Source: an uncultured Alphaproteobacteria bacterium
Lineage (GTDB): Bacteria; Pseudomonadota; Alphaproteobacteria; RF32; CAG-239
Length of the DNA stretch: 55,699 nucleotides
Assembly: GCA_944390355.1 (NCBI GenBank)
Contig: CALXPT010000009.1
Span: 1 to 55,699 of the forward strand
Direction: 5' to 3'
Of this stretch, positions 9,908 through 47,816 are shown one piece after another (position 1 is the first letter of the stretch; the number at the start of each line of letters is the position of its first letter). The translations under genes and the position numbers were made by a program. A model generated the notes under the pieces. It saw only the letters and a list, made by a program, of their open reading frames with translations. It did not search any database and had not been told where the DNA came from.

Positions 9908-10031
9908 TAAATTGTGTATAATGGTCAACTAGGGTGTTGTCTGCGGGTCTTGAAAAATTCACGTACTGTTTTGTACGCTAAAATTTTTCTCGCCCTTGAC
10001 GCCTACTATTTGACGCATTCTCCCCAATTTA
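9908..10031. repeat. Long imperfect palindrome, CTAGGGTG variant, upstream of HTH copy 1
   Basis: Ends AAATTGTG and CCCCAATTT enclose arms GTCAACTAGGGTG and GACGCCTACTATTTGAC, the inner stem GAAAAATTC/AAAATTTTTC and the apical hairpin CGTAC-TGTTTT-GTACG. The corresponding copy at 26855 has CCTAC/GTAGG in the apical stem. It lies in the region from which the HTH gene must be transcribed. Confidence 0.8.
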
Positions 10032-10175
10032 ATAAATAAGGCAGGCGGAGCTAAACAACTGTCATACCACAGTCGCCGTTATTCAATATATTACCGGCAC
10101 TCCGCCTTTTCCAGCGGAGGATTTATTGGCATGAAGGTGTTGTTTAGGCACCGTCGGCTACCTCTAACCGACATT
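10031..10175. ncRNA. Conserved structured non-coding element, copy A
   Basis: A 145-base segment is repeated with few changes at 26974-27119. It can fold as GGCGGAG (10044-10050) with CTCCGCC (10100-10106) around ACTGT-loop-ACAGT (10058-10073) and GCCG-loop-CGGC (10075-10098). The same CTCCGC can pair instead with GCGGAG at 10114-10119. CTAAACAAC (10051-10059) can pair with GTTGTTTAG (10139-10147), and GTCGG-loop-CCGAC (10153-10172) closes the element. Changes between the copies fall mainly in loops and linkers. Whether it is transcribed, and from which strand, cannot be told here. I know no matching RNA family. Confidence 0.5.
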
Positions 10176-10293
10176 CTTATAATAAATCCAAAAAAACAGA
10201 TTGCAAGGAAAAGTTTGTATAACGGGCAATTCATACAGATTTTGTAAATGTTTGGATGTGGGTATCTCTAAAAATGATTTAATATCAAAATTG
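10176..10293. other. Intergenic sequence with a half palindrome
   Basis: A left-arm fragment of the palindrome family, AAAGTTTGTATAACGGGC, occurs at about 10206 and breaks off after ATACAGATTTTG. The remaining sequence is AT-rich and leads into the promoter of the membrane-protein gene. Confidence 0.5.
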
Positions 10294-10321
10294 TTGACAA
10301 AATTAAAAAAGGTGTTAGGTT
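10294..10321 (+). promoter_or_regulatory. Promoter of the 10366 membrane-protein gene
   Basis: TTGACA (10294-10299), a 16-base spacer and TAGGTT (10316-10321) are followed by a leader containing TTTATTATTG and AAAATTATTTTTT directly before the ATG, with no Shine-Dalgarno. The arrangement recurs before 12223, 27326 and 30982. Confidence 0.75.
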
Positions 10322-10365
10322 AGTCGTGTGAAATTTATTATTGTTAAACATTAAAATTATTTTTT

Positions 10366-11277
10366 ATGGATGTATTTATTATTTGTTTAATTTGTGCGGC
10401 TCTGATGTTCGGGGTTGAATACTTCGGGCGGCGGCACATGCGGCTTTTTAAGCTAAAGGCTGAGAGCCAAAGTGGTGAAGATATTGCTTCTGCGGTAGAC
10501 CAAGTCTATTATGGCGGAAAAGAGTCCGATAAAAGCGAAGCAGAGCGATTGCGAACCCGAAAAATTAAATATGTGCTTTGGGCACTCATTATATTTTTGG
10601 GGGTGGCATCAATCGTGTTTGTCAACTTTAAAGACCAATGGCTGGGCGAGTGGAAATCTTTTTTCTCTTCGGAAAACAAGGTCGAAGTCAAGGCTCCCAT
10701 AACTAAGGCGGATGATTATTCTTTATCTGTTTGGGACTATTTGGCGGCTCAGTTTAGCTATGAAAAGGCATATAGGTATTATGGTATAAAAAAAGTCTTG
10801 GCGTATCGTGAGGTTTTGGCAGAATGTCAAAAATTAGAAGAAGAGTTAAAACAAGAAGCGAAAGATTCTAATGAGGTAGAAAATTTTCTCAAAAGAGCAA
10901 GATTAAAAGAGTGTAAAGCTGAATTGGATATTGCTCAGCAGAATTTGCAAAATTTTGATGTATTTATGTATGATTGGAAGCTTTATTTGAAGTTAAATTG
11001 GCTTATCTTGGCTCTTTTATTGATTGGCGGGGCGGATTTGTATTTTACCCTTAAAGGCGACAAGAAGAATAAAGGCGACAAAGCTAAAAATATTTGGAGT
11101 GATTGTTGCGCAGTTTTGTCAATTATTGTCGCGTTTGTCGGTGTTTTCTGGCCTTTTATTTTGTGGGTGCATAAATATCAATGCGGTATGATATTTACCT
11201 TCAAAGATGTTATCGGGATTATCTTAACCGTGTGGTGTTTTGTCTTCTTTGTGAAACATGCTTCCGAGCTAGATTAA
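10366..11277 (+). CDS. Five-helix membrane protein with periplasmic coiled coil, family member A
   Basis: The 303-residue product has predicted membrane segments near residues 2-18, 68-88, 215-232, 245-263 and 275-297. The loop after helix 2 begins with the invariant FKDQWLGEWKSFFSSE and then forms a charged helical region (residues about 150-200, ECQKLEEELKQEAKD) likely to be a coiled coil. It belongs to a four-gene family in this window (12223, 27326, 30982) with a nearly constant first 115 residues and variable middle and end. DNA from the ATG to 11079 is identical to 12223-12936, then diverges abruptly. No known domain is recognised. The start is SD-less. A strong terminator follows at 11287. 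Confidence 0.8.
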   Translation: MDVFIICLICAALMFGVEYFGRRHMRLFKLKAESQSGEDIASAVDQVYYGGKESDKSEAERLRTRKIKYVLWALIIFLGVASIVFVNFKDQWLGEWKSFFSSENKVEVKAPITKADDYSLSVWDYLAAQFSYEKAYRYYGIKKVLAYREVLAECQKLEEELKQEAKDSNEVENFLKRARLKECKAELDIAQQNLQNFDVFMYDWKLYLKLNWLILALLLIGGADLYFTLKGDKKNKGDKAKNIWSDCCAVLSIIVAFVGVFWPFILWVHKYQCGMIFTFKDVIGIILTVWCFVFFVKHASELD

Positions 11278-11421: not shown

Positions 11422-12084
11422 ATGAGAAGAACGGATGATTGCTTTATTGAAGAATTGGTTGCGGAAACTTTGAGTGAGAATGTTTCTTCCGAACAGAAAA
11501 AACATGAACATGATGAGGCAAGACAAACGCAAGGGGATTATTCCGCTAATATGAAAAGGGTCGGGATGTTTTATTATGCCGAAGAAAAGTTGTTTTCGCC
11601 TTTTTTATTGGCAGGTAAAGTTGTATCCGGCGTTGTGGTCTATGTTGATGAAAGCAGTCAGCACGGTTTGATTGCTTCATTGCGTCAAAAAGTTATGCAA
11701 TGGTCCCGCGATTATTTCTTTATTGAAGTTGATGAGGGAAGCGGTATTGCAAATACGGCTCTTATTAACAAGATTGCGCGGAGAATGCGGTGTTATGCCG
11801 ATGCTGCACAATATTGTTTTGCTTTTGCTTTAGACGGAATTAAGGCCGGCGAGGCTTTTTTGCCCAGTGAACAAGAACTTGAAAAAGTTCGTGTTAATCT
11901 TGAAGAGGTTAATCATGCTTTGCGGCAAATCAAAAGAGCGGATTTGTTTGATGATGTTTATTATCTTTCATCGACCACTCGTACCAGCGGCGGAGCCGTA
12001 CGCATGAATTTGTTTAACGGTGATGTCAGATGTGATGTGAAGAATTATGTCGGGCATTGTGTTCGTCCGTTTATGGCTTTTTAA
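11422..12084 (+). CDS. DUF1566/C-type-lectin-like cytosolic protein
   Basis: The 220-residue product has no signal peptide or membrane helix. A charged N-terminus (residues 1-45) is followed by VGMFYYAEEKLFSP, then GVVVYVDESSQHGLIA, AAQYCFAFALDGIKAGEAFLPS and a C-terminal VRPFMAF. The layout (a hydrophobic strand, a D/E-S-x-HGLI motif, a LPS-x-x-E motif and a final RPxxAF) is that of the DUF1566/Fibrobacter-paralog group of lectin-like folds. It is a paralog of the product of 47142 and shares the C-terminal signature with the exported proteins at 37627 and 44061. Function unknown. The start is SD-less, with its own TTGACA promoter. Confidence 0.7.
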   Translation: MRRTDDCFIEELVAETLSENVSSEQKKHEHDEARQTQGDYSANMKRVGMFYYAEEKLFSPFLLAGKVVSGVVVYVDESSQHGLIASLRQKVMQWSRDYFFIEVDEGSGIANTALINKIARRMRCYADAAQYCFAFALDGIKAGEAFLPSEQELEKVRVNLEEVNHALRQIKRADLFDDVYYLSSTTRTSGGAVRMNLFNGDVRCDVKNYVGHCVRPFMAF

Positions 12085-12222: not shown

Positions 12223-13119
12223 ATGGATGTATTTATTATTTGTTTAATTTGTGCGGCTCTGATGTTCGGGGTTGAATACTTCGGGCGGCGGCACATGCGG
12301 CTTTTTAAGCTAAAGGCTGAGAGCCAAAGTGGTGAAGATATTGCTTCTGCGGTAGACCAAGTCTATTATGGCGGAAAAGAGTCCGATAAAAGCGAAGCAG
12401 AGCGATTGCGAACCCGAAAAATTAAATATGTGCTTTGGGCACTCATTATATTTTTGGGGGTGGCATCAATCGTGTTTGTCAACTTTAAAGACCAATGGCT
12501 GGGCGAGTGGAAATCTTTTTTCTCTTCGGAAAACAAGGTCGAAGTCAAGGCTCCCATAACTAAGGCGGATGATTATTCTTTATCTGTTTGGGACTATTTG
12601 GCGGCTCAGTTTAGCTATGAAAAGGCATATAGGTATTATGGTATAAAAAAAGTCTTGGCGTATCGTGAGGTTTTGGCAGAATGTCAAAAATTAGAAGAAG
12701 AGTTAAAACAAGAAGCGAAAGATTCTAATGAGGTAGAAAATTTTCTCAAAAGAGCAAGATTAAAAGAGTGTAAAGCTGAATTGGATATTGCTCAGCAGAA
12801 TTTGCAAAATTTTGATGTATTTATGTATGATTGGAAGCTTTATTTGAAGTTAAATTGGCTTATCTTGGCTCTTTTATTGATTGGCGGGGCGGATTTGTAT
12901 TTTACCCTTAAAGGCGACAAGAAGAATAAAGGCGACGAAGCTAAAGATACATGGAGAGATTTTTTTTCGGTTTTGTCACTTATCGGTGCGATTATCGGTG
13001 TTTTCTGGCCGGCGGTTTTGGTGTTGTGTGAATATCAATGCGGTATAATATTTGCCTTTAAAGATGTTGTGGGTATTATTTTGGTCATTTGGTGTTTTTA
13101 TTTTTGGTTGGAAAATTAG
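12223..13119 (+). CDS. Five-helix membrane protein with coiled coil, family member B
   Basis: The 298-residue product is identical to the product of 10366 over the first 238 residues, then switches to a different C-terminus (TWRDFFSVLSLIGAIIGVFWP onward), keeping two final membrane segments and the motif GVFWP followed by FKDVVGII. The 714 identical bases sit between unlike promoters and unlike 3' ends, which points to gene conversion or a very recent partial duplication. As in member A, helix 2 leads into FKDQWLGEWKSFFSSE and a coiled coil. Function unknown; a role in envelope sensing or defence would be speculation. Confidence 0.8.
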   Translation: MDVFIICLICAALMFGVEYFGRRHMRLFKLKAESQSGEDIASAVDQVYYGGKESDKSEAERLRTRKIKYVLWALIIFLGVASIVFVNFKDQWLGEWKSFFSSENKVEVKAPITKADDYSLSVWDYLAAQFSYEKAYRYYGIKKVLAYREVLAECQKLEEELKQEAKDSNEVENFLKRARLKECKAELDIAQQNLQNFDVFMYDWKLYLKLNWLILALLLIGGADLYFTLKGDKKNKGDEAKDTWRDFFSVLSLIGAIIGVFWPAVLVLCEYQCGIIFAFKDVVGIILVIWCFYFWLEN

Positions 13120-27325: not shown

Positions 27326-28213
27326 ATGAGTACAATTATTATTTGTTTAGTTTGTGTGGCTCTGTTGTTCGGGGTTGAATACTTCGAGCGGCGGCACATG
27401 CGGCTTTTTAAGCTAAAGGCGGAGCACCAAAGTGGTGAAGATATTGCTACCGCAGTTGAGCAAGTCTATTATGGCGGAAAAGAGTCCGATAAACGCGAAG
27501 CTGAGCAATTGCGAACCCGAAAAATTAAGTATGTGCTTTGGGTACTCATTATATTTTTGGGGGCGGCATCGATTGTGTTTGTCAACTTTAAAGACCAATG
27601 GCTGGGCGAGTGGAAATCTTTTTTCTCTTCGGAAAACAAGGTTGAAGTCAAGGCTTCTGCAACCGAGGCGGATGATTATTCATTATCTGTTTGGGATTGT
27701 TTTGCGGCCTATTTCAGTCATGAAAAAGCTCTTGAGTATTATGGAACTAAGAGAGGCTTGGCTTATAATAAGGCTATGGCTGAGTTGCAAAAATGTGAGG
27801 AAACTTTGAAACAAGCTCAAGAAAGGCAGGTTAATCCTGAAATCGGCGTGCAATTAGCTCGTAAAGCGAAAGCTAAAACTAATTTGGAAAAGGCGAAAAA
27901 AGATTTTGAAAATTTGGTTTATTTTTCCAATAACTGGGAAGTTAATTCCAGATTAAATTGGATATTCCCGATTTTTCTTTTATGTTTTTCCTTCAATTTT
28001 TATGTTTTGAACAAAAATCTAAAACGACCTTATCTTGGATATGCTATTTTTGGTTCAGTCATTTGTTTTGTAGTGGGACTTGTTTTGGAGGATGTGTTGA
28101 GGGATGATTATAAAGGTGAGTTTTTGTTCACTGTGCGAGACGGACTTAATATTGCTTTTATGATTGGGAGTCTTGTTTTTTTGATTTTGTTTATGGCTAA
28201 AAACAGTGATTAA
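27326..28213 (+). CDS. Five-helix membrane protein with coiled coil, family member C
   Basis: The 295-residue paralog of 10366, 12223 and 30982 keeps the near-constant N-terminal 115 residues (RRHMRLFKLKAE, YYGGKESDK, RTRKIKYVLW and FKDQWLGEWKSFFSSE). The coiled-coil region (residues about 145-195, AELQKCEETLKQAQERQ) and the last three membrane segments are strongly diverged. It sits at the end of the second HTH/structured-element module exactly as member A does in the first. Function unknown. Confidence 0.8.
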   Translation: MSTIIICLVCVALLFGVEYFERRHMRLFKLKAEHQSGEDIATAVEQVYYGGKESDKREAEQLRTRKIKYVLWVLIIFLGAASIVFVNFKDQWLGEWKSFFSSENKVEVKASATEADDYSLSVWDCFAAYFSHEKALEYYGTKRGLAYNKAMAELQKCEETLKQAQERQVNPEIGVQLARKAKAKTNLEKAKKDFENLVYFSNNWEVNSRLNWIFPIFLLCFSFNFYVLNKNLKRPYLGYAIFGSVICFVVGLVLEDVLRDDYKGEFLFTVRDGLNIAFMIGSLVFLILFMAKNSD

Positions 28214-30981: not shown

Positions 30982-31857
30982 ATGAGTGTAATTATTATTT
31001 GTTTAATTTGTGCGGCTCTGGTGTTCGGGGTTGAATACTTCGAGCGGCGGCATATGCGACTTTTTAAGCTAAAGGCGGAGCTCCAAAGTGGTGAAGATAT
31101 TGCTTCTGCGGTTGATCAGGTCTATTATGGCGGAAAGGCAAAGGATAAAAGCGAAGCTGAGCAATTGCGAACCCGAAAAATTAAATATGTGCTTTGGGCA
31201 CTCATTGTATTTTTGGGGGTGGCATCAATTGTGTTTGTTAACTTTAAAGACCAATGGCTGGGCGAGTGGAAATCTTTTTTTTCTTCGGAAAGCAAGGTCG
31301 AAACCGAAGTTCCTGCAACCGAGGTGGATGATTATTCGTTGTCAATTTGGGACTATTTTGCTACTTATTTTAGTAGTCAAAAAGCGATGCGGTATGATTT
31401 GAGGCAAAAACAGGCTGATTATCAAGATGCTTTGGCAGAATACAGAGAATGTGAACAAGCTTTAAAACAAGCCCAGCAAAAGCAAGATAGTGAAGGTATA
31501 ACCATTCATAAAGCATATTTGGATGAGGCTAAAGCTAAAGTTGATCGTATCAAAAAAGATTTGGACAGTTTTAAATATGTTCCAAGTGATTGGAAAAAAT
31601 ATGTAAATTTGAACTGGCTTTTGTTAATACTTTTTTTGGTAAACGGTTTTATTTTGTATTCTGTTGCTAAAGATGATGACAATTGGCGTTCTATAGCCGG
31701 AATTTTGTCTCTTTTGGCCGTGATTGTCGGAGTTGCGTGGCCTTTCGCTGTTTTTCAATCGTTTCAAGGCGACATGATTTTCGGCCTCAGGGATGTTATC
31801 GGGATTATTTTGACACTTTTGAGTTTGTGCTATTTTTTTATTTTTATTGAAAATTAA
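30982..31857 (+). CDS. Five-helix membrane protein with coiled coil, family member D
   Basis: The 291-residue paralog of 10366, 12223 and 27326 has a conserved N-terminal third and the FKDQWLGEWKSFFSSE loop. The coiled coil (residues about 140-195, EYRECEQALKQAQQKQ) is diverged. The C-terminal helices keep GVAWP and LRDVIGIIL, matching members A and B more than C. No HTH gene or palindrome accompanies this copy, so the gene can exist outside the module. Confidence 0.8.
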   Translation: MSVIIICLICAALVFGVEYFERRHMRLFKLKAELQSGEDIASAVDQVYYGGKAKDKSEAEQLRTRKIKYVLWALIVFLGVASIVFVNFKDQWLGEWKSFFSSESKVETEVPATEVDDYSLSIWDYFATYFSSQKAMRYDLRQKQADYQDALAEYRECEQALKQAQQKQDSEGITIHKAYLDEAKAKVDRIKKDLDSFKYVPSDWKKYVNLNWLLLILFLVNGFILYSVAKDDDNWRSIAGILSLLAVIVGVAWPFAVFQSFQGDMIFGLRDVIGIILTLLSLCYFFIFIEN

Positions 31858-35857: not shown

Positions 35858-37573
35858 ATGGAAACTTTGGAAAATAATACGGCGTTATCTTCCGGCTCGT
35901 CTTATGACGATGCTTTGGGGGAGGTTGACGTTGTGTCCGAAATTCCTGATTTTGAAGCCGGAAAAGTGGAGTTGTCTATTCCTCAAAAATATATTTCCGT
36001 TCCTAAGCCTAAAAAGCCCAATCCTTATGCGAAAGTTAAACCCGAACCTTTGTCTAAGGGTAAGGCCGTGCCGGTTTTTCATTCGGAGACTTATGTGGAT
36101 GAAGATGGCGTGGAACATATGATTCCTCCCACTTATGATAAGTCTCAGATGAATTTGCCTCAGTCAAGGTACAAGATTTCTGATTCTCCAAACTATGAGG
36201 GAGAGCGTGTTGATATGGAAGCAGTTGCAGATACACCTGATTTTTTAAAAACTTGGCAAGATGATAATTCAGCGGCTGAGATTGATGAGGCCGTTAATGA
36301 GGCGTTGGATAATGATGCTCCGGTTGAGTATGTTCATGCAGGAGATGAAAATTCCGGTGTCGATAATGTTTCTGTTAATGATGATGCGATTGTGAATAAT
36401 AAGGAAGTTTTGGGGGGCGAGGTTTCGGTTATGAAAGAGCCTGCAGCTACTCAATCTTTTGAAGTGACTGAAAATGGGGAAATTGATTTAGAAAATTTGG
36501 ATGCGATTATTGCCGCACATACACCGCATGAAGAAGAGGTTGAAGTAAAGGATTTGTCCTCTGATGACACGCTTTTTGCATCCGGCGGGGCGGTTAATAT
36601 GCATACTATTCCGAAGTTTAGTTTGGATGATGAAAATGTGGATACAGCGGACGATGGGAAAGATGTTTCTCAAAAAGTGAATGCGACGCAATTGGATGGT
36701 CCGGTCGGAAATGAAAATGAAGTTATGTTTTTAGAGCCGGATGATGATGACCATGTATTTGATGATTTGGGAAAAGAAACAGCTGAGCCGATTTCGGTAG
36801 ATGATTTGGTCGGGATAGATGAAACCGGTGAGGCACATTCTTTTATAGATGATGATTTGGCTATTGAGCCGGAGGCCGTACAGGAGGCGGCGGAAGTTGC
36901 GGAGGAGAGCGGGCTTGCGGATGCGATTGAAACAGAGCCGGAAACCGTGCAGGAGGTTACGTTTGATGAAACAGAGCCGGAGGTTGCAAGTGAGGTAGGG
37001 CAGGAGGTTACGTTCGAAGAGGCGGAGCCGGAGGCTGCAAGTGAGGTGGCTCAAGATGTTACGTTCGAAGAGGCGGAGCCGGAGGTTGCAAGTGAGGTGG
37101 CTCAAGATGTTACGTTCGAAGAGGCGGAGCCGGAGGTTGCAAGTGAGGTGGCTCAAAATGTTACGTTCGATGAGGCGGAATCGGAGGCCGTGGGTGAGGC
37201 TGAGTTCGTAAATACTCAAAGCTCAAATCAATCAGCGATTTATTTGGAAAATTTGGCAGCTCAATCTTATAGTCTTGGTTCTTTAGAAAATTATTTGCAA
37301 GTAACGGCGCATGATTTACCTGAACAGTTTGTAGCAGATGATGTGCAGAATTCTATCCAAATAAATGCCGGAAATTCTGATTATGGGTGGTCGGTGATTT
37401 TTGATTCCGGTGTCGTTATGGGAATGTGTGATGTTAAAGAATATCAACTTCGTAACGGAAAGCTGCCAACGCCAAACGGTGCTTTGTGTTATGGTTTTAA
37501 ACGAATGAATTTCAGTGGTGTTCAAAAAATCGTTTGTTATGAAGTGCCGCGTTATTTTAGTTATATTCGCTAA
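35858..37573 (+). CDS. Acidic repeat-containing protein, function unknown
   Basis: The 571-residue product is very acidic and low in complexity. The first 90 residues contain proline/lysine-rich PKPKKPNPYAKVKPEPLSKG. Residues about 367-450 are tandem copies of VTFEEAEPEVASEVAQD. A C-terminal region of about 110 residues (SYSLGSLENYLQVTAHDLP to the end) looks folded and has no repeats. There is no signal peptide or membrane helix. The -10 TATAAT at 35806 fits a promoter, but the -35 is weak. A scaffold or polar-organising role is possible for such acidic, proline-rich proteins, but nothing here proves it. Confidence 0.7.
   Translation: METLENNTALSSGSSYDDALGEVDVVSEIPDFEAGKVELSIPQKYISVPKPKKPNPYAKVKPEPLSKGKAVPVFHSETYVDEDGVEHMIPPTYDKSQMNLPQSRYKISDSPNYEGERVDMEAVADTPDFLKTWQDDNSAAEIDEAVNEALDNDAPVEYVHAGDENSGVDNVSVNDDAIVNNKEVLGGEVSVMKEPAATQSFEVTENGEIDLENLDAIIAAHTPHEEEVEVKDLSSDDTLFASGGAVNMHTIPKFSLDDENVDTADDGKDVSQKVNATQLDGPVGNENEVMFLEPDDDDHVFDDLGKETAEPISVDDLVGIDETGEAHSFIDDDLAIEPEAVQEAAEVAEESGLADAIETEPETVQEVTFDETEPEVASEVGQEVTFEEAEPEAASEVAQDVTFEEAEPEVASEVAQDVTFEEAEPEVASEVAQNVTFDEAESEAVGEAEFVNTQSSNQSAIYLENLAAQSYSLGSLENYLQVTAHDLPEQFVADDVQNSIQINAGNSDYGWSVIFDSGVVMGMCDVKEYQLRNGKLPTPNGALCYGFKRMNFSGVQKIVCYEVPRYFSYIR
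36956..37205 (+). repeat. Tandem 51-base coding repeat
   Basis: About five in-frame copies of a 51-base unit (17 residues, VTFEEAEPEVASEVAQD) lie in the acidic protein. Units 2 to 4 are almost identical; the first and last are diverged. Such arrays change copy number by slippage or recombination without breaking the frame. Confidence 0.9.
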
Positions 37574-37606: not shown

Positions 37607-37626
37607 GACATATTGAAAAAACAAAC

Positions 37627-38487
37627 CTAAAAAGCTAGGACTGGACGAACGTACCAGTCACCAATCTTATCGCCGTTGCCCGCATTACCATTATCGAAAT
37701 CCAGACTCCAAGCACCGTAGTTAGAACTCTCGGAAGAAGACCAATGCCCATATAACGGTAGTTTTGTTCCGCCGATTGTCCCTAAAGCCGTGTTCAAAAC
37801 ATCTATATTTTGATATATGGCATTCAACTCTCCCATAGCTGGCAAATACCAATCTCCGGCTAACGTTCCTTCTGTTTTATATCTATTTACATACCAAAAT
37901 GCAGGACAATCATACCTATTCGCTTTACAATATTCAAACGCTAAACGCGTATTATTTTTACCTTGCCAATCTGCAACAGCCACCGATTCTGAGGCGATAT
38001 TTGGTAATGACGGTACATCCAAAAATTTATGTTCATTCAACCATGGTCTCCGTGCCGTATCCAACGCTATCGCTAAACGATTCGCTCGATCAAACACCAC
38101 ACCGATTGGCTTTTTAGACACTACAACACTCGGATCACAACTCATATCCGAATACAAGATAGCCCCGACAGTACAATTACTCGACGATGCTCCGTTTTCT
38201 ATTGTTACAATTTTTTCCTCTATTGTTGTTATTTTATTAGTGATTTCCGTTATCTTATTCGTTTGTTCGGTTATTTTGTTAGTTAGCTCCGTTATTTGAG
38301 TGCTTAAATCGCTTGCTGTGCAGTTCCATGCATTGCCGAACGGGCATTTAATACCGCCGTTACATGATTGACTGGAAGTATACCCCAAACTTGAACAACT
38401 CGGGGTTTGGATACAGGCAGCCTCCGCCACACCGCTCAACAAACCACTCACCACCAAAGCCGATGAATATAATAAAATCTTTCTCAT
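37627..38487 (-). CDS. Exported coiled-coil protein with DUF1566/lectin-like C-terminus, copy 1
   Basis: The 286-residue product has a signal peptide (MRKILLYSSALVVSGLLSGVAEA), a short Cys-containing region (CIQTPSCSSLGYTSS), and a heptad coiled coil of near-perfect LTNKITE/QTNKITE units at residues about 61-97. The C-terminal domain (residues 105-286) has GVVFDRANRLAIAL, DWQGKNNTRLA, GDWYLPAMGELNAIY, HWSSSES and a final VRPVLAF, typical of DUF1566-type lectin-like folds. The start follows AGGAGAAAG. It is the second gene of an operon with 38594. Codons at 37651-37725 form a hypervariable stretch compared with copy 2 at 44061 (see Findings). A trimeric stalk with a binding tip is a plausible shape. 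Confidence 0.8.
   Translation of the reverse strand: MRKILLYSSALVVSGLLSGVAEAACIQTPSCSSLGYTSSQSCNGGIKCPFGNAWNCTASDLSTQITELTNKITEQTNKITEITNKITTIEEKIVTIENGASSSNCTVGAILYSDMSCDPSVVVSKKPIGVVFDRANRLAIALDTARRPWLNEHKFLDVPSLPNIASESVAVADWQGKNNTRLAFEYCKANRYDCPAFWYVNRYKTEGTLAGDWYLPAMGELNAIYQNIDVLNTALGTIGGTKLPLYGHWSSSESSNYGAWSLDFDNGNAGNGDKIGDWYVRPVLAF
37651..37725 (-). other. Hypervariable 25-codon stretch (candidate diversity-generating retroelement VR), copy 1
   Basis: The stretch is aligned without gaps to 44820-44894. Twenty of 25 codons differ, all changing the amino acid, and only three substitutions fall in third codon positions. It is flanked by 18 identical bases on the 5' side and by the conserved VRPVLAF codons on the 3' side. 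Confidence 0.6.
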
Positions 38488-38593
38488 TTTCTTTCTCCTG
38501 TAGGCGGGGTCTACCGCCATCAATTTTGCATTGTGCCCAGACCGCCGCATTGTTAATAATTATGGTTATTTTTCCCTCTCTCTTGACTTTGAA

Positions 38594-39466
38594 CTATTGT
38601 TCAAAAGCACAATAGTCGCACCAGTCGGTACAATTTGTTGCACAGCCGGTTACAACATATAAATTCGAGCATTCTTCATAAGTGCAGACCGTACACGGCG
38701 GACATTCGCTCTCCGTACCTAAGTTCGGGCATTTTTTGCACTCCGAACACAGGGTTGTATTGCCGCTTTGGCAGGTCGTCGCTCTGTCCTCACAGCCCAT
38801 TTCCCCGCAATCCAAATATCCGGTGCAGTCTTTCTCTTTAATTTTGTATTTTTCCTTGATTTTCAATCCGCCTTCGTCGCATTCCATACAAGGCTCGCCG
38901 TTCGCTTCATAACCATCGGGAATAGAACCCAACGTATATTTATAATCTGACGAACACGTCGGGGTACAGCAATCTTGATACAAGCCGTCACCACAAACCT
39001 CTCCGACGCCTTTTAACGGAGCTTCACAAGTTACATAATTACTCGGACAATCCGGAATACATTCAGCAAAATATTTTTCATCTAACGGGCAGAATTTATC
39101 TGGCGAATAACCTTCAGGGCATGAAGTTTTGTCATAACCCATTTGAGCACAGCTTTCTTTGTAGTCATCACCATCATCATCACCACCTCCGCCTCCGCCG
39201 CTCGGCGTGGTCGGGTCTCTGTCCGTGCCGACAAAATCCGCGCCGCCGCAATCTTCCGTATCCGTTATCCAGCACACCTGTGCAACCTTGATTTCTTGCC
39301 GCTCACTAAAACTCTCGGGAGATAAATAATCTTCAGAAAAGAGGTGTGTGTGAAGTGTGTGAACAAATGTAATTTTTTCTGAAGGAAGGGAAATATCGGC
39401 TCTCACATCCGGCGCAAAAATCGCAACCGATGATAACAGCCCAAACAATAAATAAACCTTGTTCAT
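38594..39466 (-). CDS. Exported cysteine-rich protein, copy 1
   Basis: The 290-residue product has a signal peptide (MNKVYLLFGLLSSVAIFAPDVRA), a short linker with a Gly/Asp-rich stretch (GGGGGGDDDGDD, residues about 86-97), and a C-terminal part rich in cysteine, with CxxC-type spacing throughout (CPPCTVCTYEECS, CATNCTDWCDYC). It probably forms many disulphides outside the cytoplasm. I placed the start at 39466 after AAAGGAC; upstream in-frame codons overlap the promoter. It is the first gene of an operon with 37627. Its paralog at 43097 differs mainly in the linker and first cysteine region. Confidence 0.75.
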   Translation of the reverse strand: MNKVYLLFGLLSSVAIFAPDVRADISLPSEKITFVHTLHTHLFSEDYLSPESFSERQEIKVAQVCWITDTEDCGGADFVGTDRDPTTPSGGGGGGDDDGDDYKESCAQMGYDKTSCPEGYSPDKFCPLDEKYFAECIPDCPSNYVTCEAPLKGVGEVCGDGLYQDCCTPTCSSDYKYTLGSIPDGYEANGEPCMECDEGGLKIKEKYKIKEKDCTGYLDCGEMGCEDRATTCQSGNTTLCSECKKCPNLGTESECPPCTVCTYEECSNLYVVTGCATNCTDWCDYCAFEQ

Positions 39467-39506
39467 GATAAAAGTCCTTTCGATATTACTTATCTCCACG
39501 ACTCGT

Positions 39507-39535
39507 ATTATACCACAAGAAAAAAATCCTTTCAA
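39507..39535 (-). promoter_or_regulatory. Promoter of the copy-1 Cys-rich/coiled-coil operon
   Basis: On the complement, TTGAAA (39535 to 39530), a 17-base spacer and a perfect TATAAT (39512 to 39507). It is identical to the mirrored promoter at 43028. Confidence 0.9.
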
Positions 39536-39617
39536 TAGAAATTTTCGAGGTTTTCCGCGGGTTTGCACGAACTCTTTTGCATAAAAAAATTATTTAGAAA
39601 AAAGTTTTAAAATCAAA

Positions 39618-39645
39618 AAAACGCCCGAAAAATTCGGACGTTTAA
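39618..39645 (-). terminator. Terminator of rpsU
   Basis: AACGCCCGAA/TTCGGACGTT stem with a U run on the minus-strand transcript. Confidence 0.8.
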
Positions 39646-39663
39646 TCATTAAAAAATTTCTTA

Positions 39664-39870
39664 TTAGAAACCTTCGGTATCTAAGCGTTTGCGTAGCTGT
39701 TTACGAGCACGACGAATGGCCTCCGCCTGACGACGTGCCTTCTTTTCAGAGTTCTTTTCATGACAACGACGCAATTTCATCTCACGGAAAATACCTTCTC
39801 TTTGCATTTTCTTTTTCAAAACTTTCAAAGATTGGTTAACGTCATTACCGATAACAGTAACTTGAACCAC
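39664..39870 (-). CDS. rpsU: 30S ribosomal protein S21
   Basis: The 68-residue basic protein matches bS21: [20 protein letters not shown] at the start, [20 protein letters not shown] in the middle and an arginine-rich C-terminus. A GAGGTGAT Shine-Dalgarno sits upstream. It lies in the unique segment between the two arms of the inverted duplication, so any inversion through those arms would flip this essential gene without breaking it. Confidence 0.95.
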
Positions 39871-39963
39871 TTATATCACCTCATTTCATCAATAAAAAAA
39901 ACTTAAAACCTAAAAAGTTGTGCAATAAATAACACATGAAATTTATTATTGCAAGCAAAATTT

Positions 39964-40176
39964 TTAGGCAATAATATTCGGCGTAATTTTAGATTCGACG
40001 CGTTTAATTTTGCTTTGCAAACCGACGCGGCTGGAGTTCAGTTGTTTCGCCTTAAAAAAGTCAATGGTTTTATTTCTTGCAACCAAATGTCTTATATCGG
40101 AGCTGACTCGTCTTTCTTCAAGCTTAAGCTCACATAATTGATGCTGGAGTTTACCCAGATTGTCATCTCTAAACAT
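39964..40176 (-). CDS. YdcH-like DUF465 family protein
   Basis: The 70-residue helical product has two antiparallel helices: LGKLQHQLCELKLEERRVSSDI and VGLQSKIKRVESKI, ending PNIIA. The heptad pattern and the P-x-IIA terminus resemble alphaproteobacterial DUF465/YdcH proteins, whose function is not established. AGGAAATAAAA precedes the start. It is transcribed away from pfkA. Confidence 0.65.
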   Translation of the reverse strand: MFRDDNLGKLQHQLCELKLEERRVSSDIRHLVARNKTIDFFKAKQLNSSRVGLQSKIKRVESKITPNIIA

Positions 40177-40313
40177 CTGATTTTATTTCCTTTTTACAAA
40201 AAATTGTATGATAAACAAAAATTTTACTGGAAATCCTCCAATAAAATCTGTAATAAATTATACAGCATTTGGATAATTTATGCAACAAAAAAAGAATATT
40301 TAGGAGTTATTTT

Positions 40314-41396
40314 ATGAGTGAATCAAAGAAAATTGGTATTTTGACCAGCGGCGGTGATTGTGCCGGTTTGAATGCGGTTATTCGTGCAGTTGTTAACGGA
40401 GCTTCTCAAAAAGGCTGGACGGTTTACGGAATCCACAACGGTACTGACGGATTGACCGAAAAACCGCTTTCTTATGAAATTTTAACGGTGCACAATTTTT
40501 CTGACACACCATGGCCCAGATTAAGCGGTTCATACCTTGGTTCATTAAATAAAGGGGTTAAAATGGAATCATTGGCCGAAATGTCTAAACGTTTTGGCGA
40601 CGGTGTGCGGGAATTGGGGCTTGATGCCGTTATTGTTGTCGGCGGAGACGGCAGTATGAATATTACCGGAAATTATTGCAAAGGTGCCGGTATTAAAATG
40701 ATTGGCATTCCTAAAACAATTGACAATGATACTCCGATTACTGAATTTTCGGTAGGATTTAATTCAGCTTGTCAGGTTTGCACGACTGCAATTGATAGCT
40801 TGGAATTAACGGCTCGTTCTCATCACCGTGCTTTGATTTGCGAAGTTATGGGGCGCGACGCAGGACATCTGGCCATGCAATCTGCTCTAGCCGGACAAGC
40901 CGATGTTTGTTTGGTTCCCGAAATTCCTTATAAGATTGACCATGTTATCGATAAACTAAAATCAATTAAAGCCAGCGGGCGCAATCATGCCGTAATTGTT
41001 GTTTCCGAGGGAATTAAAACCGAAACGGGCGAACATCTTTCTGCTGCCAAAAACTTAATCGGTGAAGCGGTTTACGGCGGTGTCGGACAATACCTTTCAT
41101 CAGAAATCAATAAGCGTTATTCGGAATTTCAGACCCGTGTAACCACGCTCGGACATATTCAACGCTCAGGCGTTCCGAGTTGTTTTGACCGTTTGTTGGC
41201 GGCATTATTCGGGGCAAGAGCAATCGAATTACTTGCAAATGGCGAAACCAACAAAATGGTGGTTTGGAAAGGTGGGAAAGTTGAGGCTGTTTCTATTGAT
41301 GAAGTGGTTAAGAAAGGTACAACCTTGCTGGATACAAATTCTGACTTTGTCAAGGCAGCTCAAGCATTGGGTATGTATATCGGCGAAGCTAAATAA
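40314..41396 (+). CDS. pfkA: 6-phosphofructokinase (PfkA family)
   Basis: The enzyme phosphorylates fructose-6-phosphate in glycolysis. The 360-residue product has GILTSGGDCAGLNAVIRAVV, the nucleotide/diphosphate loop VVGGDGSMNITG, the catalytic PKTIDNDTP and the substrate motif MGRDAGHLA. The loop GGDGS has Gly at the position that is Asp in typical diphosphate-dependent enzymes, while the Lys in PKTIDND is the residue found in diphosphate-dependent and some ATP-dependent long forms. The phosphoryl donor is therefore uncertain, with ATP more likely. The start at 40314 is set by TAGGAG. Confidence 0.93.
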   Translation: MSESKKIGILTSGGDCAGLNAVIRAVVNGASQKGWTVYGIHNGTDGLTEKPLSYEILTVHNFSDTPWPRLSGSYLGSLNKGVKMESLAEMSKRFGDGVRELGLDAVIVVGGDGSMNITGNYCKGAGIKMIGIPKTIDNDTPITEFSVGFNSACQVCTTAIDSLELTARSHHRALICEVMGRDAGHLAMQSALAGQADVCLVPEIPYKIDHVIDKLKSIKASGRNHAVIVVSEGIKTETGEHLSAAKNLIGEAVYGGVGQYLSSEINKRYSEFQTRVTTLGHIQRSGVPSCFDRLLAALFGARAIELLANGETNKMVVWKGGKVEAVSIDEVVKKGTTLLDTNSDFVKAAQALGMYIGEAK

Positions 41397-41417
41397 GCAT
41401 CGTCTTTTATAATGGTT

Positions 41418-41447
41418 AAGCCCGTTGTAAAGCGGGCTTTTCTTTTT
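41418..41447. terminator. Convergent terminator between pfkA and the nuclease gene
   Basis: AAGCCCG-TTGTAAAG-CGGGCTT followed by T residues. Confidence 0.8.
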
Positions 41448-41456
41448 GAAAAAAAA

Positions 41457-41939
41457 CTATTTTTGCCTACGGTTCAGCGCTCGCCAGATTTCGGGTCTCA
41501 TGAAACGCCCCTGCCAGATTCCTCTCTTTTGTTTTCGGGCAATTTCTTCATCTTTTATGTATTTATCGTCATAATGGTCATAGGCAACAGCCCAGCCGCT
41601 TTTTATCATTGCCTTATTAATATCTTCGCCGTTGGCATAGCAAAATGAAACTTGTCTTTTGTAGCGATCAAGCGATATTTTTTTACAGACAACATCTTTC
41701 CCTTTAATAAAATCTACCAAAAATTCTCGCGCTTTAATGCCACAGCGATATTTTTGATTATTTTTATCATGGCAAATTTGTTTGTATTCGGGGGCATCTA
41801 TCCCTTCAAGGCGAATTTCCGTACCATTCAGCACAATACTATCACCGTCTATGACTTTAATATGCTGCATATCTCGGGCGGCCAAGTTGTGTCCTAAAAA
41901 TAGAAAACAAAGCACCCAAACAAAGGATTTTTTTCTCAT
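41457..41939 (-). CDS. Secreted thermonuclease (SNase) family nuclease
   Basis: The 160-residue product has a signal peptide (MRKKSFVWVLCFLFLGHNLAA) and one SNase domain: HIKVIDGDSIVLNG, then IRLEGIDAPEYKQ carrying the Arg, Asp and Glu of the active site, and LDRYKRQVSF with the second catalytic Arg. All catalytic positions are present. The enzyme should cleave DNA or RNA in a calcium-dependent way in the periplasm or outside. GAGGTTAGC is the Shine-Dalgarno. Confidence 0.9.
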   Translation of the reverse strand: MRKKSFVWVLCFLFLGHNLAARDMQHIKVIDGDSIVLNGTEIRLEGIDAPEYKQICHDKNNQKYRCGIKAREFLVDFIKGKDVVCKKISLDRYKRQVSFCYANGEDINKAMIKSGWAVAYDHYDDKYIKDEEIARKQKRGIWQGRFMRPEIWRALNRRQK

Positions 41940-42085
41940 TGCTAACCTCTACCCACGAGAGGATATTTCATTAAAATAAAAATATGTTTAATAACCTCAA
42001 AAAAAACTTTGTCGTTTGTAAAAGATTGTAATAAACTACTCGTAGTTTATATAAACAACTATTAATAAACATAAGGATAAATAAA

Positions 42086-42931
42086 GTGTCCGGACAAATT
42101 GGTTCCAAGTTAGTCTTATCGGTGCTTGCGCTGTTTCTGAGCAGTTGCGATTTGCGTACGCGTAGTTTTAAGGATATTATAAATGATCCGCTGAATGAAC
42201 ATGTCGAAGTTGAAAATGCAAAATTATACCGGCCGAGTTCCATTATCTTTTGTCGCAATAAACAATGCGCTCCGGCACATTTATCAATGTCTAAAGAATA
42301 TATTCACAATTCTTTATTGCATTTGCTGCAAAATAACAGTCGAAAGACCGCTTTAATTTGTGAAGCTGATCCGAGCAGTCACGCTTGTATTGAAAACTAT
42401 GTTCAACTTCCGATAAAAATAGGGATTACCCCTGGGTATTTTTATCTTGATTCTGCAAAAATTACGGATGTTTCGGTTACTAAAGGAAATTCACAAATCA
42501 GTCTTGTGTTAAATTACGGAATAACTTATAACGGACAAACGCCGGATTGTTTGGCCTCGCGAACGATTGTTTTTGCCAAGTCGCCGTCTAATATCATATG
42601 GGAAGACCCCGGGTATAGCTGCCAAATGAATGCTATCGGCCAGACTTCTGTTAAAACCGTTTTTTCGATTGATTATATAGATTTGGATTATGGTTATATT
42701 GGAGGATACTATTCTATAGGTTTGTCAGGACCGACGTATGGTGGCGGTACCGGATATATGCTTATTCGTATGCCTAAAGATGCTTATCCTTTAGCCCCTA
42801 ATTTAAAGGCTCCGAAAAATTCTAAAGTTAGCCGTCTCGGAGAACAATTATTACAGCAAGAAGTTCCGCAAAATTATAGTGGAGCAGTTAATTCGAATGT
42901 AAAAGTATTTCCGATTACACAAAAAAATTAG
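42086..42931 (+). CDS. Lipoprotein of unknown function (GTG start)
   Basis: The 281-residue product has a lipoprotein signal ending LFLSSC (Cys20) and a mature part rich in beta strands and aromatic residues (IGGYYSIGLSGPTYGGGTGY near residue 210). It begins at a GTG after AAGGATAAATAAA; no ATG gives an intact signal peptide. No conserved domain is recognised. It lies immediately before the right arm of the inverted duplication and ends in a terminator (42951-42980) whose T run touches the arm boundary. Confidence 0.7.
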   Translation: MSGQIGSKLVLSVLALFLSSCDLRTRSFKDIINDPLNEHVEVENAKLYRPSSIIFCRNKQCAPAHLSMSKEYIHNSLLHLLQNNSRKTALICEADPSSHACIENYVQLPIKIGITPGYFYLDSAKITDVSVTKGNSQISLVLNYGITYNGQTPDCLASRTIVFAKSPSNIIWEDPGYSCQMNAIGQTSVKTVFSIDYIDLDYGYIGGYYSIGLSGPTYGGGTGYMLIRMPKDAYPLAPNLKAPKNSKVSRLGEQLLQQEVPQNYSGAVNSNVKVFPITQKN

Positions 42932-42950
42932 ATTTCAATAATTAGTACGG

Positions 42951-42980
42951 CCTGTTTGTTAAAAAACAGGTCATTTTTTT
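42951..42980 (+). terminator. Terminator after the 42086 gene
   Basis: CCTGTTT-GTTAAA-AAACAGG followed by T residues. Confidence 0.7.
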
Positions 42981-43027
42981 ATGCAAAAGAGTTCGTGCAA
43001 ACCCGCGGAAAACCTCGAAAATTTCTA

Positions 43028-43056
43028 TTGAAAGGATTTTTTTCTTGTGGTATAAT
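43028..43056 (+). promoter_or_regulatory. Promoter of the copy-2 Cys-rich/coiled-coil operon
   Basis: TTGAAA, a 17-base spacer and TATAAT, then AAAGGAC as the Shine-Dalgarno before the ATG at 43097. Confidence 0.9.
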
Positions 43057-43096
43057 ACGAGTCGTGGAGATAAGTAATATCGAAAGGACTTTTATC

Positions 43097-43954
43097 ATGA
43101 ACAAGGTTTATTTGTTGTTTGGGCTGTTATCTTCGGCGGCGATTTTTGCGCCGGATGTGAGAGCCGATATTTCCCTTCCTTCAGAAAAAATTACATTTGT
43201 TCACACACTTCACACACACCTCTTTTCTGAAGATTATTTATCTCCCGAGAGTTTTAGGGAGCGGCAAGAAATCAAGGTTGCGCAGGTATGCTTTATCACC
43301 GATACCGAAGATTGCGGCGGGGCGGACTTTGTCGGCACGGATTTGGAAGGCGGCACACCGGAAGTTATACCCCCAGGGGGAGGAGATGCCGAAAGCTGTA
43401 TCAAAATGGGGTATGATAAAACCTCATGTCCGAACGGCTATAAAGGCAACAAATATTGCCCGCTGAATAATAAATATTTTGCCGAATGTATTTCGGATTG
43501 TCCGAGCAGTTACGTAACTTGTCAATCACCACAGCAAGGAGTCGGAGAGGTTTGTGGTGACGGCTTGTATCAAGATTGCTGTACCCCGACGTGTCCGGCG
43601 GAATACAAGTACACATTGGGTTCTATTCCCGATGGTTATGAAGCGGACGGCGAGCCTTGTATGGAATGCGACGAAGGCGGATTGAAAATCAAGGAAAAAT
43701 ACAAAATTAAAGAGAAAGACTGTTCGGGATATTTGGATTGCGGGGAAATGGGCTGTGAGGACAGAGCAACGACTTGTCAAAGCGGCAATACAACCCTGTG
43801 TTCGGAGTGCAAAAAATGCCCGAACCTCGGCACGGAGAGTGAATGCCCGCCGTGTACGGTCTGCACGTTTGAAGAATGCTCGAATTTATATGTTGTAACC
43901 GGCTGTGCAACAAATTGTACCGACTGGTGCGACTATTGTGCTTTTGAACAATAG
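43097..43954 (+). CDS. Exported cysteine-rich protein, copy 2
   Basis: The 285-residue paralog of 38594 has an almost identical signal peptide and C-terminal 150 residues (GVGEVCGDGLYQDCC to DWCDYCAFEQ). The linker is different (LEGGTPEVIPPGGGDAES), and the CP-x-x-YKGNKYCPLNNKYFAEC segment carries many substitutions. The mosaic pattern suggests exchange between the copies or diversification of the middle. It is the first gene of a two-gene operon. Confidence 0.75.
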   Translation: MNKVYLLFGLLSSAAIFAPDVRADISLPSEKITFVHTLHTHLFSEDYLSPESFRERQEIKVAQVCFITDTEDCGGADFVGTDLEGGTPEVIPPGGGDAESCIKMGYDKTSCPNGYKGNKYCPLNNKYFAECISDCPSSYVTCQSPQQGVGEVCGDGLYQDCCTPTCPAEYKYTLGSIPDGYEADGEPCMECDEGGLKIKEKYKIKEKDCSGYLDCGEMGCEDRATTCQSGNTTLCSECKKCPNLGTESECPPCTVCTFEECSNLYVVTGCATNCTDWCDYCAFEQ

Positions 43955-44060
43955 TTCAAAGTCAAGAGAGAGGGAAAAATAACCATAATTATTAACAATG
44001 CGGCGGTCTGGGCACAATGCAAAATTGATGGCGGTAGACCCCGCCTACAGGAGAAAGAAA

Positions 44061-44918
44061 ATGAGAAAGTTTTTATTATATTCAACAATTTTGGTGGCTT
44101 TTACGATGAGCGGCGGGGCGGCAAATGCAGCGTGTATTCAAACTCCGACTTGTTCAAGCTTGGGTTATACCTCAAGTTCATCCTGCGACGGCGGTATTAA
44201 ATGCCCGTTCGGCAATGCATGGAACTGCACAGCAAGCGATTTAAGCACTCAAATAACGGAGCTAACTAACAAAATAACCGAACAAACGAACAAGATAACG
44301 GAGGTTACTAATAAGATAACAACAATAGAGGAAAAAATTGTAACAATAGAAAGCGGAGCATCGTCGAGTAATTGTACTGTCGGGGCTATCTTGTATTCGG
44401 ATATGAGTTGTGATCCGAATGTTGTAGCGTCTAAAAAGCCAATCGGTGTGGTGTTTGATCAAGCGAATCGTTTAGCGATAGCGTTGGATCCAGAGGCGGT
44501 AAAATGGTGGGTTGATAATCCTTTTGATGTACCGACATTATCAAATTATAGTTCACCATCAGAGGCAACAGCAGATTGGCAAGGTAAAAATAATACGCGT
44601 TTGGTGTTGGAGTATTGCAAGACGAATGAGAGGAGAGGTTGTCCTGCAGTTGAATATGTGAATCGCTATAAAACGGAAGGAACACAAGCAGGAGATTGGT
44701 ATGTGCCAGCTATGGGAGAGTTGAATGCCATATATCAAAATAAAGATGTTTTGAACATGGCTTTAGGGACAATCGGCGGAACAGAACTATACAGTGAGCA
44801 TTGGTCTTCTTCCGAGAGTCCTAGCGGCCTTGTTTGGATTCAGGATTTCTATGATGGTGTTGTCGACAACAGCACTGTGTATGCTAAACTTTTCGTTCGC
44901 CCGGTCCTAGCTTTTTAG
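44061..44918 (+). CDS. Exported coiled-coil protein with DUF1566/lectin-like C-terminus, copy 2
   Basis: The 285-residue paralog of 37627 has a signal peptide (residues 1-24), a Cys region, a heptad coiled coil (residues 61-97, LTNKITE repeats) and a DUF1566-like domain ending VRPVLAF. Ordinary substitutions and short indels separate the copies between residues about 160 and 245. From Pro254 to Phe278 the copies differ at 20 of 25 residues with no indel. AGGAGAAAG sets the start. The 106-base spacer from 43097 contains an inverted repeat (GGCGGTCT/AGACCCCGCC) conserved in both arms. Confidence 0.8.
   Translation: MRKFLLYSTILVAFTMSGGAANAACIQTPTCSSLGYTSSSSCDGGIKCPFGNAWNCTASDLSTQITELTNKITEQTNKITEVTNKITTIEEKIVTIESGASSSNCTVGAILYSDMSCDPNVVASKKPIGVVFDQANRLAIALDPEAVKWWVDNPFDVPTLSNYSSPSEATADWQGKNNTRLVLEYCKTNERRGCPAVEYVNRYKTEGTQAGDWYVPAMGELNAIYQNKDVLNMALGTIGGTELYSEHWSSSESPSGLVWIQDFYDGVVDNSTVYAKLFVRPVLAF
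44820..44894 (+). other. Hypervariable 25-codon stretch (candidate diversity-generating retroelement VR), copy 2
   Basis: The stretch aligns without gaps to the complement of 37651-37725. There are 12 first-position, 15 second-position and 3 third-position differences. It is bounded by identical TGGTCTTCTTCCGAGAGT upstream and by GTTCG(T/C)CC(A/G)GTCCTAGC downstream. A GC hairpin (44938-44968) lies about 20 bases beyond the stop codon. Confidence 0.6.
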
Positions 44919-47141: not shown

Positions 47142-47816
47142 ATGGAAAAACAGGAAAAGAAATCAAAAAAGGAAATTTGGAAGGAAATTTCTTTGGATTT
47201 TCGGTCGTTGTGCCGAGAGCTGAGGCTTTGGTGGTTGCCAGGGAGAGGGAATTCTGAATCAGAAAAGAAAATCCGGAAAAAGAAAGTCGGGATGTTTTAT
47301 TATGCCAAAAAGAATTTCTTTTCCGAAAAGCGTCTTTGGGGCAAGACAATGTCAGGCATTGTTGCTTATGTCGATGAAACAGGAGAGCATGGCTTAATTG
47401 TTCTTTTGCATCCTAAAAAAATGCAGTGGTCGAGTGATAAGTTATCTGTCAGGTTGCCTCGTGATTCGAGGGGAAAAGAACGTACGCGCTTGATTTTGGA
47501 AGCTGCTGCTATGCAAGCCAAAAAGGCTGAGGCGGCAGAGTATTGCGCAACGTATGCTTTTGATGGTATTAAAGCCGGAGAAGCATTTTTGCCAAGTATG
47601 GAAGAATGGGAAAAAGCTATTGGGCCTAATATTTCATTGTTGAATGAAAAATGGCGTTCGATAAAAGGAAAAGATTTGTTGGAAAAGGGGGCGTATTGGT
47701 CTTCTTCCCAATTTTTGTTTAATTTATCTTTTGCTTTGATTTTCGATGATGATGATTGGGATTTGGCGTTGAAAGATAATAATGATGTCTATGTTTGTCC
47801 GGTCATTGCGTTTTGA
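47142..47816 (+). CDS. DUF1566/C-type-lectin-like cytosolic protein, paralog of 11422
   Basis: The 224-residue product has a very basic, lysine-rich N-terminus (residues 1-50) and then the same sequence of motifs as the 11422 product: KVGMFYYAKKNFF, SGIVAYVDETGEHGLIVLL, AAEYCATYAFDGIKAGEAFLPS, YWSSSQ and a terminal VCPVIAF. There is no signal peptide. It has the same promoter type and SD-less leader as its paralog 36 kb away. Function unknown. The fold assignment comes from the WSSS and LPS motifs and the C-terminal signature. Confidence 0.7.
   Translation: MEKQEKKSKKEIWKEISLDFRSLCRELRLWWLPGRGNSESEKKIRKKKVGMFYYAKKNFFSEKRLWGKTMSGIVAYVDETGEHGLIVLLHPKKMQWSSDKLSVRLPRDSRGKERTRLILEAAAMQAKKAEAAEYCATYAFDGIKAGEAFLPSMEEWEKAIGPNISLLNEKWRSIKGKDLLEKGAYWSSSQFLFNLSFALIFDDDDWDLALKDNNDVYVCPVIAF

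What the first reader, a model, noticed from the sequence alone, without database searches (positions are those of the whole stretch)
37651..44894. Diversity-generating-retroelement-like hypervariation at the C-termini of two paralogous exported proteins
Comparing the complement of 37651-37725 with 44820-44894, the two genes align without gaps, but 20 of 25 codons differ and every difference changes the amino acid. There are 12 first-position, 15 second-position and only 3 third-position differences, the reverse of normal drift. The flanks are almost identical: 18 bases upstream, and the VRPVLAF codons downstream with two silent changes. This is the pattern produced when adenines of a template rich in AAY codons are randomised into NNY codons by a diversity-generating retroelement (DGR). 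The domain (WSSS motif, RPVxAF end, DUF1566-like) is of the C-type-lectin-like kind that such systems diversify. A template at all differing sites could be adenine (for example AAT, AAC, GAT, CAG, AAG codons). No reverse transcriptase or template is in this window, so the system would act in trans.
Basis: partly seen in the sequence, partly recalled or inferred. Interest (0 to 1): 0.93.

Follow-up and report, generated by a model that had tools for sequence, protein, structure and literature searches.

The report
Retroelement-written lectin genes, writer missing
Two genes of an uncultured alphaproteobacterium, predicted to encode exported lectin-like proteins, end in stretches that were likely rewritten by a diversity-generating retroelement: a species of the same genus carries matching adenine-rich templates and the enzyme genes, while searches of the assembled genome around these two genes found neither, so the writer was probably either lost or missed in assembly.

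Summary
The two stretches are variable repeats (VRs) of a diversity-generating retroelement (DGR). The genome gives 44 family matches; 18 VR-like ends were collected, and 17 align to a template. A congener, G005, then proved to hold a nearly identical real template between a bAvd gene and a reverse transcriptase (RT). Against G005's two templates, 307 of 629 template-adenine sites but 64 of 655 other sites differ in those 17 VRs. The silent third base of changed AAY codons is kept in 293 of 334 cases over all 37 VRs of both genomes. In the window's genome no RT, bAvd or template was found. Two sites where congeners carry the cassette are intact and empty. The machinery is lost or unassembled. 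Congeners show 1 to 7 tandem templates and, in one, RT apart from Avd plus templates. The mechanism is known; the scale, the template arrays and the missing writer are of interest.

The parts
44802..44915 (+). Variable repeat (114 nt) of the first target gene, WSSSE...RPVLAF; hypervariable core 44820-44894
   Evidence: nearest G005 TR1, but 9 of 38 non-adenine core sites changed; third-template-like codons CAG / GTC GAC
37630..37743 (-). Variable repeat (114 nt) of the second target gene; hypervariable core 37651-37725
   Evidence: 19 of 37 template-adenine sites and 6 of 38 other core sites differ from G005 TR1
44061..44918 (+). Target gene 1: exported-looking protein (signal peptide by inspection), coiled coil, C-terminal Lcl_C / C-type-lectin-like domain (longer ORF from 43998)
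37627..38487 (-). Target gene 2: paralogue in inverted orientation (longer ORF to 38550)
   Evidence: Pfam Lcl_C 34.6 bits, just under the 34.9 cut-off; 77% identity to target 1
42956..43954 (+). Cysteine-rich partner gene directly upstream of target 1; the same kind of pair stands beside the DGR in G005
38597..39568 (-). Cysteine-rich partner gene directly upstream of target 2; together an inverted duplication of about 2 kb at 87% identity
44892..44919 (+). Conserved 3' end of the VR, candidate initiation-of-homing site (inferred)
   Evidence: 15 copies in the genome with at most 3 mismatches, 0 in the control; this copy has 3
37626..37653 (-). Same conserved 3' end in target 2 (inferred homing site)
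   Evidence: exact match

Best explanation
The two stretches are variable repeats likely written by a diversity-generating retroelement, in which a reverse transcriptase with its Avd partner would copy an adenine-rich template RNA, put random bases opposite adenines, and paste the copy over the 3' end of scattered lectin-like genes. Shown here: adenine-specific differences against real templates of a congener; template, bAvd and RT side by side in that congener; an abrupt 5' boundary of the shared segment; no RT, bAvd or template found in the assembled window genome; two cassette sites intact and empty. Inferred: that the writer acted in trans in the ancestors of this strain, that at least three templates fed the repertoire, and that the machinery has been lost or lies in an unassembled piece (about even). 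Predicted: the product is an exported binding protein whose binding face varies.
For: Template typed from the VRs before any relative was read matches G005 TR1 except for one codon and two bases. Against G005 templates, core sites, alignment not favouring adenine: 17 of 18 G000 VRs, 307/629 adenine sites vs 64/655 others changed (p 1e-56); 19 G005 VRs, 314/700 vs 48/745 (p 1e-68); 4 VRs in each genome have zero non-adenine changes. Third base of changed AAY codons (codons 6-25): kept 270, T/C switched 10, purine 7 in the 32 of 37 VRs used; kept 293, switched 24, purine 17 in all 37. In 14 of 18 G000 VRs the first 15 nt are identical, while the 30 nt before them differ by 40% in an ungapped comparison. 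G005 order: VR, bAvd, TR1, TR2, RT. [ILV]GxxxSQ and YVDD in 8 of 8 genus RTs and in L223. RT in 8 of 11 genus genomes, the window's genome among the 3 without. P0118 vs the 37.6 kb gene: 95% identity before the VR, 50% in it; P0056 vs L003: 98.5% and 59%.
Against: No RT (0 matches, the latter at E up to 10), no bAvd and no template in a genome listed as 100% complete. The sites used by G005 (C10) and by other congeners (C20, ligA/tol) are uninterrupted and empty. The window pair fits TR1 worse than most: 9/38 and 6/38 non-adenine changes. The 44.8 kb VR is largely kept in relatives (6 of 33 and 8 of 33 residues differ). Of the 20 listed pairs with at least 97% identity before the VR, 17 keep 94% or more of the VR, 1 is low only through a longer tail, and the 2 with real turnover both involve P0056. 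One VR is shared unchanged by proteins about 10% different before it (P0058 and L003). VR lengths occur that match neither G005 template. The templates used for scoring come from another species.
Confidence: 0.92

Rival explanations
1. Ordinary paralogue divergence under positive selection on the ligand-binding loop, with no retroelement.
For: The family is large and paralogous (44 matches); lectin-type binding loops often evolve fast (recalled); the part upstream of the VR also differs between the two copies.
Against: It does not explain conservation of the silent third base in variable codons (293 of 334 over all VRs), identical synonymous codons in the first 15 nt of 14 of 18 VRs, or a template predicted blind and then found.
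Confidence: 0.03
2. Gene conversion or cassette shuffling among the paralogues makes the mosaic, without reverse transcription.
For: N-terminal and partner stretches are near-identical between paralogues; the same VR occurs in proteins about 10% different before it (P0058 and L003), so conversion or plain retention does occur; VR lengths vary by whole codons.
Against: Conversion moves existing sequence; it cannot by itself create new changes concentrated on adenines of a non-coding template. It may act alongside the DGR.
Confidence: 0.04
3. Sub-question, compatible with the best explanation: the species has an active cassette at a third place and this 42-contig assembly simply lacks it, so VRs are still being rewritten.
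For: 4 G000 VRs have zero non-adenine changes; P0056 and P0118 show VR turnover; repeats break assemblies and two target genes lie at contig ends, C34 and C11; an RT 72% identical to G005's lies on short contigs (P0122, longest 4006 bases), possibly from a nearer species.
Against: Listed 100% complete; searches negative; both sites known in the genus are empty; the 44.8 kb VR looks frozen and most close pairs keep their VR.
Confidence: 0.5
4. The writer comes in trans from a phage or prophage.
For: Some DGR clades are almost wholly viral (PMC8144416, passage).
Against: The cassettes of G005 and G008 sit among chromosomal housekeeping genes; no relative of the RT and no template match in the viral contigs (each with limited patterns).
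Confidence: 0.03

Closest known systems
Canonical DGR (BPP-1 order: target, avd, TR, RT; order recalled)
   Same: Congener G005 has the same order with bAvd, templates and an RT with the SQ motif; adenine-specific variation at the 3' end of a lectin-type gene
   Different: In the window genome only VRs were found; many dispersed targets; several templates per cassette in some congeners
Remote / trans DGR targets in cyanobacteria (PMC7517822, passages) and Thiohalocapsa PB-PSB1 (PMC10907252, passages)
   Same: VRs far from the cassette, paralogous C-type-lectin targets; PB-PSB1 also has incomplete DGR loci and candidate remote targets
   Different: In those reports remote targets are tied to a DGR of the same genome; here no RT was found in the assembly
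Multi-VR and multi-template DGRs (PMC6642488 section 13: Stenotrophomonas SKA14, 2 templates and 6 VRs, five in DUF1566 proteins; PMC3521204 section 14: distal VRs >370 kb away, near a strongly mutated RT)
   Same: DUF1566/Lcl-type targets, several templates, secondary RT decay
   Different: 7 tandem template-like copies in G001; 18 (G000) and 19 (G005) VRs collected on many contigs; in G008 RT apart from Avd plus templates
Legionella Lcl C-terminal domain (8q4e)
   Same: Domain profile and predicted fold
   Different: No collagen-like repeats seen; a predicted long helix stands before the domain; below Pfam cut-off in the window proteins

Membership tests
Diversity-generating retroelement (whole system) | RT of the DGR clade ([ILV]GxxxSQ and YxDD) | tested here: not met
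   Window genome: 0 matches. Genus: 8 of 11 genomes have one; motif in all 8 and in L223. The window genome is filed as holding DGR targets, not a DGR; the assembly may be incomplete.
Diversity-generating retroelement (whole system) | Non-coding adenine-rich template repeat | tested here: not met
   Window genome: none found. G005, G008, G002, G001, G007: 2, 2, 3, 7, 1 template-like copies
Diversity-generating retroelement (whole system) | Accessory protein (Avd type) | tested here: not met
   bAvd PF22296: own 0; genus 7 of 11. G005: 58.4 bits over the cut-off of 40; NCBIfam Avd 53.1 bits, under its cut-off of 80
DGR variable repeat / target gene | VR differs from template almost only at template adenines | tested here: met
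   307/629 vs 64/655 in 17 of 18 VRs, against a congener's templates; 4 VRs with no other change. The two window VRs have 9/38 and 6/38 other changes.
DGR variable repeat / target gene | VR at the 3' end of a target ORF | tested here: met
DGR variable repeat / target gene | C-type-lectin-type fold of the target domain | tested here: inconclusive
DGR variable repeat / target gene | Initiation-of-homing site: VR and template 3' ends alike but distinguishable | tested here: inconclusive
   VR end GCTTTT then TAG vs template end GCTTAT in G005; function not tested, hairpin not examined
DGR variable repeat / target gene | Observed mutagenic homing in a population | not testable with these tools
   No reads; only indirect comparison of relatives, with few cases of turnover
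Lcl_C (PF07603) | Score over the curated cut-off | tested here: not met
   26.2 and 34.6 bits against 34.9; yet the precomputed annotation of P0001, identical to target 1, names PF07603.18

The most novel reading that the evidence does not exclude
A genus of small-genome Alphaproteobacteria runs a multi-template DGR, with up to seven tandem templates, as a genome-wide writer for dozens of scattered lectin genes, and species such as this one have shed the writer and keep the finished repertoire as frozen, selectable surface diversity.
Probability: 0.4. Interest if true: 0.72.

Novelty: new member of a known kind. Interest (0 to 1): 0.55.

Why it matters
It gives a natural experiment. Related genomes with and without a detectable writer share the same kind of targets, so one can ask what happens to hypervariable repertoires once mutagenesis stops, how one RT serves several templates, and whether templates specialise for subsets of targets. 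It also shows that VRs can be recognised, and their template read off, from a genome in which no RT is found, a case that surveys starting from the RT would miss.

Tried and rejected
A non-coding 24-nt match to the VR end on C13 was read as a possible template, but it is only a duplicated 3' flank of another target. PADLOC and NCBIfam gave only RT families of other kinds for the G005 RT, the NCBIfam ones under their cut-offs. The genome-contig scan found 3 loci, all titled uncultured Alphaproteobacteria bacterium. Scans of viral contigs found no RT relative and no template (short or exact patterns, so limited). Foldseek with the domain model gave no hit at E<=0.001, while the full-length model (pLDDT 54) matched 4eps and 8q4e and VIA-align ranked these two first for the domain model; I treat the fold as likely, not shown. 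Seven word searches of an open-access library listed no paper that I could see to be about this genus's DGRs; of the papers cited I read passages, plus section 13 of PMC6642488 and section 14 of PMC3521204, and no supplements.

Rows dropped or not looked at: L035 (poor alignment); L013, L033, L035, L036; L002, L012, L035, L036 and G005's L199, and codons with a purine third base, (all put back, where the kept share falls from 270 of 287 to 293 of 334). The two templates themselves were removed from the G005 count. For G005 I fetched 19 regions plus the cassette locus, against 48 family matches; one of these (L196) gave no VR by the pattern. 19 G007 regions were fetched but not analysed. One search used the 120 listed of 843 database relatives.
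Full report
OBSERVATION. The segment lies at the 3' end of two paralogous genes in inverted orientation, each downstream of a cysteine-rich partner gene; the two pairs form an inverted duplication of about 2 kb at 87% identity.

THE FAMILY. One search of the window's own assembly (G000, 1.71 Mb, 42 contigs, listed 100% complete) gives 44 matches to the target protein, some of them N-terminal only. Many of the ends show a fixed frame, WSSSE.S...AW.L.F..G.V....K.....YVRPVLAF, with runs of variable codons; a few members have other ends. The variable codons are mostly NNT or NNC, and which of T or C occurs depends on the position. From the G000 loci held, 18 VR-like ends were collected by a pattern that allows three mismatches.

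BLIND PREDICTION. From these VRs I wrote down the template they imply and searched G000 with it. No template was there; the strong matches were VRs. Relatives were read afterwards. RVT_1 occurs in 8 of 11 genomes of the genus, not in G000. In G005 the RT stands in the order target VR, bAvd, TR1, TR2, RT. TR1 matches the typed template except for one codon and two bases, one of them the VR/template end difference also seen inside G005. This agreement is the strongest single argument. It is a prediction by eye, but it was fixed in the call record beforehand.

ADENINE SPECIFICITY. With an alignment score that does not favour adenine, and counting only the core, 17 of 18 G000 VRs (L035 dropped) differ from the nearer G005 template at 307 of 629 adenine sites and 64 of 655 other sites; 19 G005 VRs at 314 of 700 and 48 of 745. 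Four VRs in each genome have no non-adenine change. In template AAY codons changed at position 1 or 2 (codons 6-25), the third base is kept 270 times, switched between T and C 10 times and a purine 7 times in the 32 VRs chosen; over all 37 VRs, poor fits included, the counts are 293, 24 and 17. T and C are synonymous there, so selection on the protein does not explain it. The first 15 nt of 14 of the 18 G000 VRs are identical while the 30 nt before them differ by 40% in an ungapped comparison, which overstates divergence where lengths differ.

THE WINDOW PAIR. Of the 30 differing sites 23 are adenines in TR1. The 37.6 kb VR is nearer to TR1 (6 of 38 other sites changed) than the 44.8 kb VR (9 of 38). 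The latter shares CAG and GTC GAC codons with two other G000 VRs, and several database relatives show the same AW.Q residue pattern; I infer a third template not seen in G005. The 44.8 kb VR is largely kept in relatives P0004 and P0005: 6 and 8 of 33 VR residues differ, against 18 and 9 of 152 in the middle of the protein. It has probably not been rewritten for some time. P0118, by contrast, is 95% identical to the 37.6 kb gene before the VR but 50% within it, and P0056 vs L003 is 98.5% against 59%. These are exceptions: of 20 listed pairs with at least 97% identity before the VR, 17 keep 94% or more of the VR.

WHERE IS THE WRITER? Searches of G000 found no RVT_1, no match to the G005 RT at E up to 10, no bAvd and no template. 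The site of the G005 cassette is on contig C10: ZIP transporter, fused partner and target gene, small lipoprotein-like gene, tRNA-Ser, homologue of the G005 265-aa gene; only about 70 bases lie between the target's stop and the lipoprotein-like gene. The site used by several congeners, between ligA and a membrane-protein gene, is on C20 and holds only a partner and target pair. Both stretches are inside contigs. Loss or a third, unassembled site both remain possible; I hold them about even.

THE GENUS. Template-like copies in the stretches read: G001 7 (one looks degraded, one is short), G002 3, G005 2, G008 2, G007 1; none recognised beside the RT in G003, G004, G010 or L223. In G008 the bAvd gene and two templates lie next to a tolB-like gene on one contig while the RT lies near ligA on another, both more than 1.5 kb from contig ends. 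bAvd is over its cut-off in 20 of 126 genomes of the family. Family matches per genome range from 20 to 78 in the genus with a shorter query that finds 32 in G000.

COMPARISON. DGRs with several VRs, with more than one template, with distant VRs and with a decayed second RT are in print (PMC6642488 section 13; PMC3521204 section 14 and passages; PMC7517822 and PMC10907252 passages). Hence 'new member of a known kind'. What I did not see in those passages is a genome with this many VRs and no RT found, or an array of seven templates; the 6-template Pseudomonas case is described there as having few A-to-N substitutions.

VERDICT. Observation confirmed, mechanism supported, current activity in this strain not shown and possibly over.

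Noticed in passing
L230 (G008:C26) about 5290-6164 and L100 (G008:C30) 6594-7958: Split cassette in congener G008: bAvd with two templates beside a tolB-like gene, RT alone near ligA on another contig.
   Followed up: partly
L104 (G001:C129) about 9150-10916: Seven tandem template-like copies between bAvd and RT, of differing length; one has low adenine content and looks degraded.
   Followed up: partly
L101 (G010:C50), L102 (G003:C43): The RT frame opens a few bases after the bAvd gene and no template is recognised nearby; the template may lie elsewhere.
   Followed up: no
VRs of G005 and G000: VR lengths of 114 to 129 nt in whole codons, although G005's two templates are 114 and 117; slippage on AAY runs or vanished templates could explain it.
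   Followed up: partly
P0010, P0058 and G000 L003: The same VR is found in proteins about 10% different before it, which suggests retention or gene conversion of written VRs.
   Followed up: no
window 47142-47816 and 11422-12084: Two shorter proteins without an obvious signal peptide end in WSSSQ...CPVIAF and YLSST...RPFMAF; distant relatives of the targets, apparently not recent VRs.
   Followed up: partly
window 10366-11277, 12223-13119, 27326-28213, 30982-31857: Four paralogous, membrane-protein-like ORFs with closely similar N-termini.
   Followed up: no
window 36930-37220: Repeated acidic motif (EVASEVAQDVTFEEAEP) inside a 571-aa ORF.
   Followed up: no
window 422-5061: Transposase-type ORF near two reverse-strand ORFs that look Bacteroidota-like to me (recalled style, no search made); possible transfer or chimeric contig end.
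   Followed up: no
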